Assembly (NCBI GenBank): GCA_015039465.1
Contig: MU130497.1
Location: 748,014 to 812,013 of the forward strand
Reading direction: 5' to 3'
DNA from: Phlegmacium glaucopus
Taxonomy: Eukaryota > Basidiomycota > Agaricomycetes > Agaricales > Cortinariaceae
Length of the DNA: 64,000 bases
Numbering within the stretch: the stretch's first letter is position 1; each line of letters starts with the position of its first letter. Shown one piece after another: positions 1 through 16,434 of this stretch. Below the pieces are notes generated by a model. The model was not told the origin of the DNA and searched no databases. It was given only the letters and a program-made list of their open reading frames with translations. The translations under genes and the position numbers were made by a program.

Positions 1-1858
1 CTATCCTGAATAGTTCGTCATGATACTACTATTTACCTGGTTAAAACGTAATCATTACGTCCTATTACCTCTGACCCTGTTACGTCTCGTCGACTCCCAA
101 CTTCAATACCTGTACTCTTTCTTCGACGAACCACGTCTTGTAGGTGTGTGGGAGTCATCATACCCTTTAGATCGTTCGTGTATGTCCTTAGTCCCTTCTA
201 CCTTACTCCGTCTCGTTGACTTCCAAGTTCAATACCTGTACTGTTTCTTCGACGAACCACGTCTTGTAGGTCTGTGGGAGTAATCATACCCTTTAGATCG
301 TTCGTGTATGTCCCTAGTCCCTTCTACCTTACTCCGTCTCGTTGACGTCCAAGTTCAATACCTGTACTCTTTCTTCGACGAACCACGTCTTGTAGGTCTG
401 TGGACAGAATCATACCCTTTAGATCGTTCGTGTATGTCCCTAGTCCCTTCTACCTTACTCCGTCTCGTCGACCTTCAAGTCCAATACCTGTACTTTGTGT
501 TTGACGAACCACATCTTGTAGGTGTGTGGGAGTTCTCATACCGTTTAGATCGTTCATGTATGGTAGTAGTCCCTTCCACCTTACTTCGTCTCGTTGACCT
601 CCAAGTCCAGTACCTGTACTCCTTCTTCCACGAACCACGTCTTGTAGGTCTGTGGGAGAGTTCGTAACGTTTAGATCGTAGGTGTATGGCATTAGTCCCT
701 TCCACCTTACTCCGTCTCGTCGATCTCCAAGTTCACTACTTGTACTGTTTCTTCGAAAAACCACGTCTCGTAGGTGTGTGGGAGAATTCGTACCCTTTAG
801 ATCGTAGGTGTATGGTCCTAGTCCCTTCCACCTTACTCCGTCTCGTTGACCTCCAAGTTCAATACCTGTACTCTTTCTTCGACGAACCACGTCTTGTAGG
901 TCTGTGGGAGTTGTCATACCCTTTAGATCGTTCGTGTATGATCTCAGTCCCTTCCACCTTACTCCGTCTCGTCGACTTCCAAGTTCAATACCTATACTCC
1001 TTCTTCGACGAACCACGTCTTGTAGGTCTGTGGGAGTGGTCATACCGTTTAGATCGGTCGTGTATGTCCCTAGTCCCTTCCACCTTACTCCGTCTCGTCG
1101 ACCTCCAAGTTCAATACCTGTACTCCTTCTTCGACGAACCACGTCTTGTAGGTTTGTGGGAGTTGTCATACCGTTTAGATCTTTCGTGTATGTCATTAGT
1201 CCCTTCTACCTTACTCCGTCTCGTCGACCTACAAGTTCAATACCTGTACTCCTTCTCCGACGAACCACGTTTTGTAGGTCTGTGGGAGTGATCATACCGT
1301 TTAGATCGTTCGTGTATGTCCTTAGTCCCTTCCACCTTACTCCGTCTCGTCGACCTCCAAGTTCAATACCTGTACTCCTTCTTCGACGAACCACGTCTTG
1401 TAGGTCTGTGGTAGTCGTCATACCGTTTAGATCGTTCGTGTATGTCCCTAGTCCCTTCTACCTTACTCCGTCTCGTCGACTTCGAACTTCAGTAGTTATA
1501 TTTCTTCTTTTATCCTTCTCTGACTTCACCGGGTTAGTAGTTTCATACGTTCATAAAATATGACATAGAGTAAATAGAAGTTAAAGTTAAAACTTGTGTC
1601 TTTGACTTTCTTTCTGTGTGAAGATTATGTATGAGAGGGAAAGTTACGATGGTGAGTTCAGTTTTGATTTTTATTTATAGAGTTCCACGTTATTTGTAAG
1701 TCCGGTACTGGATGAATTAATATGAACCTGTACGGAGATTCCATCCGTGGTAGTCCTTGGTCGTGGGAATACATTAGATAATACATTCGCGGTTCTCCGT
1801 GTTTTACAAGCCAAACTTTTTTTTTATTTTTAGTTCGCGTCCTTTCCCGTATATTCTC
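1..1858. other. Mirror-image (reversed, not complemented) block of the NLR TPR 3' end
   Basis: On its face this is a tandem array of eleven 126-bp units (42 codons) at about 60-1480 with open frames on both strands, followed by a unique tail. Reading the bases backwards (1858 to 1) without complementing gives the plus-strand sequence of the second NLR copy: the kinesin-light-chain-type TPR repeats (13000-14250), its stop region and its 3' flank (about 12540-12780). Equivalently, complementing bases 1 upward without reversing gives sense codons that continue the gene at 1859 (IGLIKQYYDDKW), run through 11 EHP-containing TPRs and end INIKKKIGRD-stop near 1540. Removing the reversal restores an in-frame join at 1858/1859. 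The plus- and minus-strand repeat-protein frames seen here are therefore not genes. The mirror relation is seen directly; artefact is my inference for its cause. Confidence 0.93.
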
Positions 1859-3951
1859 TCCCTTCCATGTAATTCATTTGCCTTAATATGTGGGAAAATC
1901 AACCTTCGCAGTGCATAATCCTGACTTTCAAATCTCCATGGAATTGCACATGACAAGATTATGCTTCCCATCTCACACAATCTTTGCTGCTCAGACTTTA
2001 ACATTCTCTCACGACTCCAGTAGTGCACCAGAGGATGAACAGACAACATCTTAGATGATTGTCCTCTTTTCACCAAGGAGAAAGAAAGAAGGACACTAAC
2101 TCCTCGTCCAAAGATGAAGTCATCCCAGTGACCATCATTGTCCAACCCAAGCAGAGTATGATCCAATAAAGTGACTGCCTGGGGTAACTTTTCAGCTCTG
2201 TCATTATCAACAAGTTTCATGGTCTCCTCAGCAGCAGATTGGAATATCTCTTTAGAAATATTGCTATGATGATAGAAAGCACATATTTGGAGAATTAGGA
2301 TTGCAGCCTGTGCAGCCTGTGCATCCCCAGCAGTGGAATCTCCACCAGCCCTCCTTTCTATTTCTTTGAAAGAAAGGTCCCAAGTCCCATACACTGTTCT
2401 ATCATACTTTGATGCTCCTGTGAATGTAGCATCTGACATAAGAGCTTTACGGTGTGCTGAGAAGTGCCTTAGATATCTATCAATATCACATCTCCCAGCC
2501 TCAATGTAGGCACCAGCATGATTAATAGCAAGAGGAATGCACCCAAGTTCAGTCACAATCTTTTTGGCAGCATGTAAATGCTCAGGCAATGGCTGCAAAC
2601 AGCCAGCCTTAAGAAGGAGAGCTATAGCATCTGCCTCCTCCATTTCATGGATCTCAATATTGTTCTCAAATGACACAATCCTTCCCATAGATCTATTTCT
2701 GCTGGTAATCAGAATATTACCTCTGTCACCTGGAGGGAAGAACTTGGCCACCACCTCTGGAGGAGGATCATCAGCATTGTCAAACACAATCAACCATTCT
2801 TCTTGGAGAGAAGATATCCACTGGAGGACAGGCTCAACTGAGCTATCCACCCCAGGACCTTGTGCAGCAGGAAGGGTAGATATACCCTTGAGAGACATTT
2901 TCATGCTCTCCTGAGAGGAGGCATCAATCCAGAACACATGTGAAAAACTAACAACAAATGAATCTAATGTTGTGAATGGCAAATTAAGAACCCTTACTGG
3001 TCAGACATTTCCTCTATGAACTTGAGAGAAATCTGGGTCTTTCCAATCCCTCCCAATCCCCAGAGGAGACATGAGCACCTAGACATCAGTCTACTAGCAC
3101 TATGATGAATAAAAATCTTGTGAAGTTTATCGAGTACATCTTGCCGTCCAGTAAAGATTGGACTGGAGTTAGGTTTTTGAGTCACAAGGATATTTATCTG
3201 CCTTTCACCGTTATTGGCAGGCAGACTAATGTTCTATATGTACAATTATGGCTGGATTATACACACAACCTACGACAAAGACTCACGAAAGTGCTGCCAG
3301 TGATAAGGACATTCTGGGCGTTCGCAAAGACACCCAAGACAGATTGTTGAGCCTGCTGATCATTAGCGAAAGCCGAGAACACCTGGTGTAATCAACTCAC
3401 GGAGGGATGTTGTTCGGATTCAGTGGATCTCAAGCTAGTTTGCATTACGGCATCAGATGAGGAGGGCGAATTTCCTTCTGGACGGGCTACAGGTGTAACC
3501 GCCAAAGCGGAAACCGAAGTGGAGACTTGAAGTTCATGCGTAGTCTGATCGACGATGACGATTGAGCAATTATGGATGTGATGGGGTAAGTTAAACACTC
3601 ACATGAACGCCGGTGTCTGGAACGTTTACAGGAGCAAGATCATTCAGTACCAGAGCGGAAGCCGAAGTAGAGATTGGGAAGTCATGAGCAGTCTGATGGA
3701 TGACGATGATAAGATACTTGAGGATACGATGGGCGAACTTGAACGCTCACAGTAACGCCCGCGACTTGAATAACTTGTGCGCTTGCAGCAGCAGCGCTAG
3801 CGGGAACGGATTGCATGGAGTGAGCAGTGCTTGTTATGATTGTCGATGTCGAAGTTGCTGGTTTAGGGCTTGAACGCAGAGCATCGTCGATGGTCAGAGA
3901 TGAAGATTTTGGTTTCTTGGGCTTGACGAATTTGTTGAAAATGCGCTTCAT
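1859..3951 (-). CDS. NB-ARC NLR-like protein, copy 1 (TPR end lies in the mirrored block)
   Basis: A STAND/NLR-type NTPase of the fungal NB-ARC-TPR kind, thought to act as an intracellular sensor. Exons on the minus strand: 3951-3751, 3692-3603, 3544-3401, 3355-3287, 3233-2998 and 2947-1859. ATG at 3951 opens a basic, Ser-rich leader; exon 4 encodes the ANAQNVLITGSTF motif often found before NB-ARC/NACHT domains in mushrooms; exon 5 has FTGRQDVL and the P-loop GLGGIGKTQ; exon 6 has the Walker B-like WLIVFDNADDP and the RNBS-type ILITSRNR. The last intron (2997-2948, 50 nt) is GTAAGG...TTAG. As written, the frame runs past 1859 into a spurious tail ending at 1804, because the true C-terminus sits mirrored in 1-1858. 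About 90% alike to the copy at 12774-16434. No internal stop in the unmirrored exons. Confidence 0.82.
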
Positions 3952-11949: not shown

Positions 11950-12773
11950 AAGTTCCTTGGCATGGTCAGATCCACTCAGAACCGGTTTTCACCAGGGTTG
12001 ATTAGGAACCATGTAGGCCATTATATAAGCAGCAAAATGTTGGGTTCAAGAAAAAAAAGAAGTAAATGTAGAGGAAATGAAAAGAGATGTGGTACAATTT
12101 AAATTTATGTATTTATTGTAGTATACTTTTTCTCATGCTCAGATTTGAGCTTTAGAGCCATGTCCAGGGGGTAATATACAATCACCATGAGATTTGTGGT
12201 TGGCCCAAGCAGCCTCTGGACCAGGTAAACCTTGGCAATAAGCACTGATGAACAGAGCAGCACAGTTTACAGTTTACACAACTAGTGTTCAAAGGTTGTC
12301 AAAGATATGACCTACACAATCTCTATGAACAAAGTCTTATTCTGGAAACTACACCTTGAATTCTGTGGCGTAAATAATGTCAGCATTTTTTGATGAATCA
12401 GTCTATTTATCAACCATTCATTGCAAATCCTATTCACCAGATGTTTCAAAAGCAATTAGTTTATGAATGTGCTTTCAACACACTTTTGGTCATAATGAGC
12501 ATGCACTTTCCATTTTAGAACATGTCACATGTAACTTCACAGAATGTGGATGACTTCTACTTTCATGGCCTGAATGTTTACTGCTCCTTGAGATAGTTTA
12601 TTTGAGTTTTAAGTTGAATGCCAGCATTCAAAGGAAGACTATGTTCTGTTCCTACTAAAAAGTTTCCCCCAATTTTCCGCTAAAATTTTTAATTTAAATT
12701 GTTTGTTTTCAATTTAAAAGTAAATAACATAGAGTATGAATGAATACTTGTATACTTTTATCATTGGGCCACT
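11950..12773. other. AT-rich spacer, no gene seen
   Basis: Follows the last readable permease exon and reaches the stop of NLR copy 2. The part from about 12540 is the 3' flank of the NLR gene; its counterpart is the mirrored stretch at about 1550-1800. Poly-A and poly-T runs near 12050 and 12660. No coding potential seen. Confidence 0.5.
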
Positions 12774-15700
12774 TCAGTCTCTTCTGAGTCCTATTCTCTT
12801 CTTTATATTCATAACTTCAAGCTTCAGCTGCTCTGCCTCATTCAACCTTCCTTGATGATGGTATGTGCTTGCTAAATTTGCCATGCTGTTCAGGGTGCTT
12901 GGATGTTCTACACCAAGAAGCTTCTTCCTCATGTCCATAACATGAATCTCCAGCTGCTCTGCTTCATTCCACTTGCCTTGATGAAAATATGTGATTGCCA
13001 TATTTGCCATACTATTGAGGGTGTCTGGATGTTCTGCACCCAGCATCTTCTTGCTCATGACCAGAACTTTAATACCCAGCTGCTGTGCCTTATTCAACCT
13101 TCCCTGATGCCTGTATGTGCCTCCTAGATTTTCCATACTGTTCAGAGTGTTTGGATGTTCTGCACCAAACAGCTCCTTGCTCATGTTCATAACTTTAATA
13201 CCCAGATGCTCTGCCTCATTCCATCTCCCTTGATGGTTGTATGTGCTTGCTAGATTTGCCATACTGTTGAGAGTGTCTGGATGTTCTGCACCAAGCAGCT
13301 TCTTGCTCATATCCATAACAGTAACCTGCAGCTGCTCTGCCTCAGTCCACCTTCCCTGATCCCTGTATGTGCTTGCTGGATTTGCCATGCTGTTGAGGGT
13401 GTCTGGATGTTCTGCACCAAGAAGCTCCTTGCTCATGATCAAAACAGTAACCTGCAGCTGCTCGGCCTCAGTCCACCTTCCCTGAAGATGGTATGTGCTT
13501 GCTAGATTTGCCATACTGCTGAGGGTGTCTGGATGTTCTGCACCAAGCAGCTTCTTTCTCATGTCCATAACTTGAACCTCCAACTGCTCTGCCTCATTCC
13601 ACCTTCCCTGATTCCAGTATGTGTGTGCTAGATTTGCCATACTGCTGAGGGTGTCTGGATGTTCTACACCAAGCAGCTTCTTTCTCATGTCCAGCACTTG
13701 AACTTCCAGTTGCTCTGCTTCATTCCACCTTCCCTGATCCCTGTATGTGCTTGCTAGATTTGCCATACTACTGAGGGTGTCTGGATGTTCTGCACCCAGC
13801 AGCTTCATGCTCATGTCCACAACTTGAACCTGTAGATGCTCTGCTTCATTCCACCTTCCCTGAAGACGGTATATGCTTGCTAGATTTGCCATATTGCTGA
13901 GGGTATTTGGATGTTCTTCACCAAGAACCCATTTGCTCATGTCCATAACTTGAATCTGCAGCTGCTCTGCCTCATTCCACCTTCCTTGAAGACGGTATGT
14001 GCTTGCTAGGTTTGCCATACTGATGAGGGTATTTGGATGTTCTACACCAAGCAGCTTCTTACTCATGTCCATAACTTGAACCTCCAGCTGTTCTGCTTCA
14101 GTCCACCTTCCCTGATTCCAGTATGTGTGTGCTAGATTTGCCATACTGATGAGTGTGTCTGGATGTTCTGCACCAAGCAACTTCTTCTTCATGTCCATAA
14201 CTTGAACCTCCAGCTGCTCTGCATTGTCCCAGTCTCCATTCTCCCACATTACTAATGCAAAATTGGTCCATTTATCATCATAGTACTGCTTGATAAGTCC
14301 TATCTCTCTTCCATGTAATTCATTTGCCTTAATATGTGGGAAAATTAACCGTCGCAGTGCATAATCCTGGCTTTCAAATCTCCATGAAATTGCACAGCAC
14401 AAGATTATACTTCCCATCTCACACATTTTCTGCTGGTCAGATTTTAACATTCTCTCCCTGCTCCAGTAATGTACCAGAGGATGAATAGACAACATTTTAG
14501 ATGATTGTCCTCTTTTCATTAAGGAGAAAGAGAGCAGGACACTAATCCCTTGTCCAAAGATGAAGTCATCCCAGTGACCATCATCATCTAAGCTAAGCAG
14601 AGTATGATCCAGTAAAGTGACTGCTTGAGGTAGCTTTTCAGCTATGTCACTATTAACAACATGTTTCATGGCCTCCTCAGCAGCAGATTGAAATATCTCT
14701 TTAGAAATATTGCTATGATGATAGAAGGCACATATTTGAAGAATTAGGATTGCAGCCTGTGCTGCTTGTGCATCTCCAGCAGTGGAATGTCCACCAGCCC
14801 TCCTTTCTATCTCTTTGAAAGAAAGATCCCAAGTCCCATACACTGTTTTGTCATACTTTGATGCTCCTGTGAATGTAGCATCTGACATAAGAGCATGACG
14901 ATGTACTGAGAATTGCCTCAGATATTTATCAATATCACATCTCCCAGCCTCAATATAGGCACCAGCATGATTAATAGCAAGAGGAATGCACCCAAGCTCA
15001 GTCACAATCTTTTTAGCAGCATGTAGATGCTCAGGCAATGGCTCCAAACAGCCAGCCTTGAGAAGTAGAGTTATAGCATCTGACTCCTCCATTTCAAGGA
15101 TCTCAATTTTGTTCTCAAATGATACAATCCTTCCCATGGATCTGTTTCTGCTAGTAATCAGAATATTGCCTCTGTCACCTGGAGGGAAGAACTTGGCCAC
15201 CACCTCTGGAGGAGGATCATCAGCATTATCAAACACAATCAACCATTCTTCTTGGAGAGAAGATATCCACTGGAGGACAGACTCAACTGAGCCATCCACC
15301 CCAGAATCTTGTGCAGCAGCAAAGTTAGATATGCCCTTGAGGGACATTCCAATGCTCTCTTGGGAGGAGGCATCAATCCAGAACACATGTGAAAAACTAA
15401 CAAGAAATGAATCCAGTCTTGTGAATGGAAAATAAGAATGCTTACTTGTCAGACATTTTTTCTATGAACTTGAGACAAATTTGGGTCTTTCCAATTCCTC
15501 CCAACCCCCAGAGGAGACATGAGCACCTTGACATCAGTCTACTACTACCATGATGAACAAAAATCTTCTCAAGTTTATTGAGTACATCTTGCCGTCCAGT
15601 AAAGATTGGACTGGGGTTGGGTTTTTGAGTTACAGGGATCTTCATCCGCCCTTCACCAGTATTAACAGGGAGAATATTGAAATTGTTCTACATGTACAAT

Positions 15701-16434
15701 TATTGCTAAATCATACACGCTATTTATGAGAAAAGGCTTACGAAAGTGCCGCCAGTGATGAGGGTGTTCTGGGCATTCGCAAGCAAACCCAAGGCAGATT
15801 GTTGAACCTGCTGATCATTAGCGAAAGCCGAGAACGCATGGTGTAAGCAACTCACAGAGGGATTTTGTTCTGATTCTATGGGTCCCAATTTGGCTCGCAT
15901 TACGGTATCACGTGAAGGTGAATTTCCTTCAGGGACAGCCAGAGCGGAAACCGAAGCAGAGACTTGGAGTTCATGGGAGCTCTGATCGACGAGGATGATT
16001 CAGTAGTGATAGATAAGATGAGCTAAGTTGAACACTTACATTAACGCCAGCGGCTGGAACGCTTGCAGGAGCGAGTCGGAGGCCATGGGCAGTCTGATCA
16101 AGGACAGGTGATTAAATACTTGGGGATGCGATGGGTGAAGTTGAACGCTCACAGTAGCGCCAGCTACTTGAATAACCTTTGCGCTTGCAGACGCAGCGCT
16201 AGCGGGAACGGATGGCATACAGTCAGCGCCGGTGCCTGTTATGATTGTCGATGTCGACGTTGCTGGTTCAGGCCCAGGGCTCGAATCCAGAGGATCGTTG
16301 ATGATCGGAGATGAAGATTTTGTACTTGAGAAATTTCTTAAAAATGCGTTTCGTATGGTTGTATAGTGAGTGGTGTGAATGTGGTGAATGTGGTCAGTTT
16401 CTAATGCTTCAAATGTATATATCCGGTCCAACAT
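12774..16434 (-). CDS. NB-ARC-TPR NLR-like protein, copy 2 (full length)
   Basis: A fungal STAND NTPase of about 1131 residues, probably a cytosolic sensor or heterokaryon/defence-type protein (family inference). Exons: 16434-16153, 16093-16040, 15981-15856, 15810-15742, 15687-15446 and 15396-12774. Order of domains: Ser/Ala-rich leader, ANAQNTLITGGTF motif, FTGRQDVL with P-loop GLGGIGKTQ, Walker B-like WLIVFDNADDP, ILITSRNR, a winged-helix-like region with CAFYHHSNISKE, then eleven 42-residue kinesin-light-chain-type TPRs with the LLGAEHPDTL core. The ATG used by copy 1 is ATA here, so I start at an upstream in-frame ATG at 16434, which makes the leader longer. Exon 2 is 36 nt shorter than in copy 1. 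Highly similar TPR units suggest ongoing repeat homogenisation. Confidence 0.87.

What the first reader, a model, noticed from the sequence alone, without database searches (positions are those of the whole stretch)
1..1858. Mirror DNA: the first 1858 bases are reversed without being complemented
The apparent 11-copy, 126-bp satellite is not a satellite. Reading it backwards gives, base after base, the plus strand of the TPR region of the NLR copy at 12774-16434, including its stop region and 3' flank (for example TTGGGCCACTTCAGTCTCTT near 12765). The 11 TPR units are matched by 11 here, and undoing the reversal restores an in-frame gene at 1858/1859. The block's left edge coincides with base 1 of the window. 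Template copying, inversion and recombination all keep strands antiparallel, so they give a reverse complement and never a plain reverse. A data-handling, assembly or deliberate-edit artefact is therefore far more likely than new biology. Any repeat-protein gene annotated here would be false.
Basis: seen in the sequence. Interest (0 to 1): 0.93.

Follow-up and report, generated by a model that had tools for sequence, protein, structure and literature searches.

The report
Mirrored gap-patch, an assembly artefact
The first 1858 bases of this window are a genome-assembly mistake: a patch of ordinary repeat-gene DNA was pasted beside an assembly gap written backwards without swapping strands, and the same mistake recurs in this assembly, so no new biology is needed and gene models there are false.

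Summary
Bases 1-1858 read backwards, not complemented, match the TPR part of the gene copy at 12774-15386; forward, complement, reverse-complement and shuffled versions do not. Against paralogue L010 the restored sequence is collinear over 2458 bases at 93%, with the best cut at exactly 1858.

The window begins at the first base after at least 3000 N. The genome shows 17 distinct places with mirrored TPR sequence (a lower bound). Sixteen run into an N gap, a run of 25-27 A, or a contig end. Runs of exactly 25 A occur 157 times on the record's plus strand and once on minus; exactly 24 A, 0 and 1 times. A cell cannot know the record strand, so these are placeholders. Of 24 such spacers tested (of 157), 10 have a flank that reads as mirrored, one an ankyrin gene.

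Verdict: a gap-filling error that wrote patches reversed but not complemented. PBJelly is the likely tool (inferred).

The parts
1..1858 (.). Mirrored gap patch: the true sequence written in reverse order without complementing. As written, the coding part with the TPR array is at about 1-1525 and the gene's 3' flank at about 1526-1858
1..1 (.). Edge of an assembly gap: C171:745014-748013, directly to the left and outside the window, is all N
   Evidence: searches (L001 1-1500; L075), coordinates
1858..1859 (.). Junction between the mirrored patch and normally written contig
   Evidence: alignment score peaks at cut 1858
1859..2982 (-). Normally written upstream part of the same gene (within ORF 1804-2982), cut off from its TPR array by the artefact
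12774..15386 (-). Normally written paralogue with TPR repeats, the local yardstick
   Evidence: Pfam TPR_10 8.3e-152 and TPR_12 3.5e-134
450..1196 (-). ORF taken as spurious, produced by the mirroring
   Evidence: no Pfam family at E 0.001
686..1291 (+). ORF taken as spurious, produced by the mirroring
   Evidence: TIG_2 2.1e-5 (25.4 bits, above Pfam's cut-off of 23.4, 24 of 94 profile positions) and HTH_10 8.6e-4 (below its cut-off); taken as chance on a repetitive string
904..1563 (+). ORF taken as spurious, produced by the mirroring
   Evidence: no Pfam family at E 0.001

Best explanation
Bases 1-1858 are a gap-filling patch inserted with a strand-handling error. A scaffold had a gap inside a TPR array. 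A gap filler extended the contig that begins at 1859 leftwards into the gap. The extension, in the outward-facing orientation, was complemented but not reversed when written back (or a correctly oriented one was reversed), so the record holds reverse(true) instead of true. Where two extensions met without overlap, a 25-base placeholder was written, which appears here as 25 A on the record's plus strand. Shown: the mirroring, its contact with N gaps, 25-A runs and a contig end, its recurrence in this assembly and in non-TPR sequence, and the synthetic nature of the 25-A runs. Inferred: that a gap filler did it, which program (PBJelly, about 0.7), which half of the reverse-complement step failed, and that the 25 A stand for 25 N.
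For: Only the plain reverse aligns, in place at cut 1858. N lies directly left of base 1. One search lists 19 matches, which I count as 17 distinct places; 8 adjoin N, 7 adjoin a run of 25-27 A, 1 runs to a contig end. At L070 the order is normal 1-1048, mirror 1049-1964, N from 1965, and the two parts meet at neighbouring bases of L037. Exactly 25 A: 157 plus, 1 minus; exactly 24 A: 0 and 1; binomial p 9e-46. 5-mer direction test at 24 of 157 spacers: 11 of 46 testable flanks below the threshold, against 2 of 113 other-locus and 0 of 116 window control pieces. The L046 flank read backwards gives ankyrin repeats (PF00023, 6.8e-48), while the longest forward ORF of that flank has no Pfam family. 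L053 reversed matches L048 over 695 bases at 99.4%. L067 in reverse relation matches L050, L053, L063 and L064 at 92-96%. PBJelly treats 25 or more N as a gap, extends flanks into gaps and flags overfilled gaps (passages of PMC3504050); it inflates short gaps to exactly 25 bases (passage of PMC6733440). JGI patched hybrid fungal assemblies with PBJelly (passage of PMC7550596).
Against: No read data were available; the program, its log and the species are unknown. One of 17 places (C167, L074) has no N, A run or contig end in the 2.1 kb fetched. Of 24 spacer sites, 14 had no flank below the threshold, so the error hits only part of the patches or the test misses short ones. With 1500-base flanks of the first 12 sites, 7 of 23 flanks were beyond all 70 controls, but four of these (both flanks of L048, L049 right, L056 left) did not pass the stricter test. 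Two of 113 control pieces fell below the threshold, which is itself the 1st percentile of those 113. The placeholders are A, while the PBJelly passages speak of N, so a later conversion must be assumed. No paper in my search listings was seen to describe such a bug.
Confidence: 0.97

Rival explanations
1. A real biological event put reverse-not-complement DNA into the genome (parallel-strand copying or an unknown recombination).
For: The mirroring is real as written and recurs.
Against: At 16 of 17 places it adjoins N, record-strand-specific A runs or a contig end, which a cell cannot know. The restored window block reads as an ordinary paralogue (L010, 93%). A non-TPR stretch is mirrored at 99.4%. 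Template copying and recombination keep strands antiparallel (established knowledge).
Confidence: 0.003
2. A deliberate or synthetic mirror: mirrored DNA used as sequencing controls, or an edit planted in this window.
For: Mirror-image DNA controls exist (PMC6430799, seen only in a search listing with the start of its abstract).
Against: The blocks lie in place inside this genome's own genes, at 17 TPR places and at 10 of 24 tested spacers on various contigs, with variable lengths ending at gaps.
Confidence: 0.02
3. An ordinary inversion or inverted repeat (reverse complement) misread as a mirror.
For: None found.
Against: The reverse complement gives no BLAST hit and scores 11.0, against 1004.5 for the plain reverse.
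Confidence: 0.001
4. The same kind of artefact from another step or tool (another gap closer, a scaffold-merging script, a file conversion) rather than PBJelly.
For: No call names the tool, and 25 A instead of N points to some extra conversion step.
Against: 25-base spacers, mirrored sequence reaching into N gaps and up to a contig end fit PBJelly's described behaviour.
Confidence: 0.3

Closest known systems
PBJelly long-read gap filling (PMC3504050 and PMC6733440; passages seen)
   Same: Gaps defined at 25 or more N, flank extension into gaps, overfilled gaps, short gaps set to exactly 25 bases
   Different: The passages speak of N, here the runs are A; the passages seen do not describe mirrored patches
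Mirror-image (chiral) DNA controls (PMC6430799; search listing and start of abstract only)
   Same: Reverse nucleotide order without complement
   Different: Those are made on purpose; here the blocks are this genome's own genes, in place, beside gaps
Fungal NOD-like receptors with repeat arrays (PMC4986451; search listing only)
   Same: The underlying gene carries near-identical 42-aa TPR repeats

Membership tests
Gap-filling artefact | Block adjoins an assembly gap, a placeholder or a contig end | tested here: met
   16 of 17 distinct TPR places; the window block touches N
Gap-filling artefact | Placeholders of fixed length, tied to the record strand | tested here: met
   25 A: 157 plus, 1 minus; 24 A: 0 and 1
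Gap-filling artefact | Affects unrelated sequence, not one gene family | tested here: met
   10 of 24 spacer sites; ankyrin gene; non-TPR repeats
Gap-filling artefact | Reads contradict the written sequence | not testable with these tools
   no reads held
PBJelly output | Gap placeholders of exactly 25 bases | tested here: met
   length fits the passage of PMC6733440
PBJelly output | Placeholders written as N (the letter used at overfilled gaps was not stated in the passages seen) | tested here: not met
   they are A; so it is not filed as PBJelly output, only as likely
PBJelly output | Program named in the assembly's methods | not testable with these tools
True inversion | Reverse complement aligns to the normal copy | tested here: not met
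TPR-repeat gene (after restoring order) | Tandem 42-aa TPR units | tested here: met
   PF13374 2.5e-96 on the restored frame; 11 units against 11
NLR | NB-ARC or NACHT domain | tested here: inconclusive
   not called by Pfam at E 0.001 in the 694-aa and 870-aa ORFs; exons further upstream were not scanned

The most novel reading that the evidence does not exclude
A strand-handling bug in a widely used gap-filling step has written reverse-not-complement DNA, marked by record-strand-specific 25-A runs, into more public assemblies than this one. It would have gone unnoticed because homology searches and gene finders do not try plain reverses.
Probability: 0.35. Interest if true: 0.5.

Novelty: not a real feature. 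Interest (0 to 1): 0.22.

Why it matters
As biology, it does not. As data quality it does: mirrored patches create false satellites, false ORFs and false gene truncations, and here they fall in repeat-rich TPR and ankyrin genes, where short-read assemblies tend to have gaps. Two cheap tests can expose them in any assembly: count exact 25-base homopolymers per record strand, and search plain-reversed gap flanks against the same genome.

Tried and rejected
Inversion or inverted repeat: rejected. Real mirror biology: rejected because 16 of 17 blocks adjoin N, strand-specific A runs or a contig end. Planted edit: unlikely, since the pattern is spread over many contigs. A 126-bp satellite: rejected, the units are TPR codons written backwards.

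Led nowhere: naming the species. Finding the bug in print: searches (15 of 16 listed; 8 of 8; 6 of 6; 15 of 3,087; 12 of 64; 10 of 29) show no title or abstract start that describes it. Of those papers only PMC3504050, PMC6733440 and PMC6240028 were opened, by passages. One search timed out; its remaining loci were run with coarser settings.

Caution on one result: the table of 'distance 0' to N or A runs (14 loci) used block edges that I had trimmed to the artefact edge. The untrimmed BLAST edges lie within about 5 bases of it.

Full report
OBSERVATION. The window is G000:C171:748014-812013, from a genome of 60,534,613 bases in 259 contigs. I searched five versions of bases 1-1858 against the plus strand of the rest of the window. 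Only the plain reverse hit: 85.4% over 1598 columns to 12711-14304. Alignment scores to 12500-14310 are 1004.5 for the reverse and 10.5 to 11.0 for the other three orientations, with a maximum of 17.0 in 100 triplet shuffles and in 100 base shuffles. Eleven TPR units face eleven. Against L010, the best-scoring normally written match of the restored block, the restored sequence is collinear over restored bases 1-2458 at 93.08% with one compensating pair of one-base gaps; the best of 36 cuts tried is exactly 1858. The 694-aa frame across the junction matches TPR families at E down to 2.5e-96. It ends at a stop after the seventh unit, beside those two gaps; after the stop the frame goes on through four more units to the usual C-terminal end.

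WHY THE BLOCK STARTS AT BASE 1. The contig continues to the left, but as N: L001 1-1500 are N and so are all 1501 bases of L075, together 3000 bases. The window starts where a gap ends.

IT IS NOT ALONE. Searching the genome with the block as written gives 19 matches, which I count as 17 distinct places (two C209 rows are one block, two C167 rows another); the tool calls such counts lower bounds. Using plain reverses against 30 normally written TPR loci (L009-L038) and the window, I mapped the blocks. Eight adjoin N: the window block, L005, L006, L007, L041, L042, L070, and L004, where homology starts at about C171:165470 and the reversed 5-mer signal continues in all 15 300-base steps from 165587 up to the N at 169914. 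Seven adjoin a run of 25-27 A: L002, L003, L008, L043, L044, L071, L073. One, L072, runs to the contig end. That is 16 of 17. The exception, C167 (L074), has weak homology and a stretch of reversed 5-mer signal with no N or A run in 2.1 kb; it may be a gap that was fully closed. L070 is the cleanest: normal to 1048, mirrored 1049-1964, N from 1965, the two parts meeting at neighbouring bases of L037.

THE SPACERS ARE SYNTHETIC. Runs of exactly 25 A flanked by other bases occur 157 times on the record's plus strand and once on the minus strand. Runs of exactly 24 occur 0 and 1 times. Biology is symmetric between the strands of a record, so this is a placeholder (binomial p 9e-46).

NOT LIMITED TO TPR. 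I tested 24 of the 157 spacers: the first 12, which the tool returned as loci, and 12 that I picked from its printed list of places before seeing their sequence. A 5-mer model, trained on window 1859-64000, measures whether a stretch reads better forwards or backwards. In cross-validation an order-4 Markov version scored 96% of 308 normal 400-base pieces as forward and all eight pieces of the block as backward. Two of 48 spacer flanks were mostly N. Of the 46 tested, 11 fell below the threshold, at 10 of 24 sites; controls below the threshold were 2 of 113 pieces from other loci (L024, L011) and 0 of 116 overlapping window pieces (Fisher p 2e-5 against the 113). The threshold is the 1st percentile of those 113. 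An earlier run on the first 12 sites with 1500-base flanks put 7 of 23 flanks beyond all 70 controls; four of these did not pass the stricter. In a cross-validated scan in steps of 100, no 400-base piece of window 1859-64000 scored below -15. Homology agrees. The right flank of L046 read backwards gives ankyrin repeats (PF00023, 6.8e-48; longest forward ORF: no family). L053 reversed equals L048 over 695 bases at 99.4%. L067 left of its spacer is in reverse relation to L050, L053, L063 and L064 at 92-96%. At the 10 sites, mirrored flanks lie left of the spacer six times and right of it five times.

MECHANISM. A leftward extension of a contig is naturally assembled in the outward-facing orientation and must be reverse-complemented before it is written back. 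Doing only the complement gives reverse(true), which is what is seen. PBJelly defines gaps as 25 or more N, extends flanks into gaps and flags 'overfilled' gaps where two extensions do not overlap (passages of PMC3504050); it inflates short gaps to exactly 25 bases (passage of PMC6733440). JGI patched ALLPATHS-LG fungal assemblies with PBJelly (passage of PMC7550596), which shows that such assemblies exist, not that this is one. PBJelly as the tool, and 25 A standing for 25 N, are inferences. I saw no report of the bug in the listings of searches, which show titles and abstract starts of part of the papers found.

VERDICT. An assembly artefact, not biology. The gene underneath is an ordinary TPR-repeat gene of a large family in this genome (81 matches with 40 of 268 candidates scored). 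The three ORFs listed inside the block as written are taken as spurious; one has a short TIG_2 match above Pfam's cut-off, which I take as chance. The finding is worth a note to whoever holds the assembly and a check of other hybrid assemblies.

Noticed in passing
G000 genome-wide, for example L045-L068: 157 placeholder runs of exactly 25 A on the record's plus strand; any gene model across one is suspect.
   Followed up: partly
L074 (C167:135700-137800): Reversed 5-mer signal at about 751-1500 with no N or A run nearby; possibly a fully closed gap with a mirrored filler.
   Followed up: partly
L024 2941-3920 and L011 1-980: Two control pieces that also scored as reversed; they may hold unrecognised mirrored stretches.
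   Followed up: no
window 1-1858, restored block: One in-frame stop after the seventh TPR unit, beside a compensating pair of one-base gaps against L010; a patch consensus error or a real pseudogene.
   Followed up: partly
G000: A very large TPR-gene family (81 matches with 40 of 268 candidates scored); overlapping or neighbouring matches on one strand suggest arrays longer than the query.
   Followed up: no
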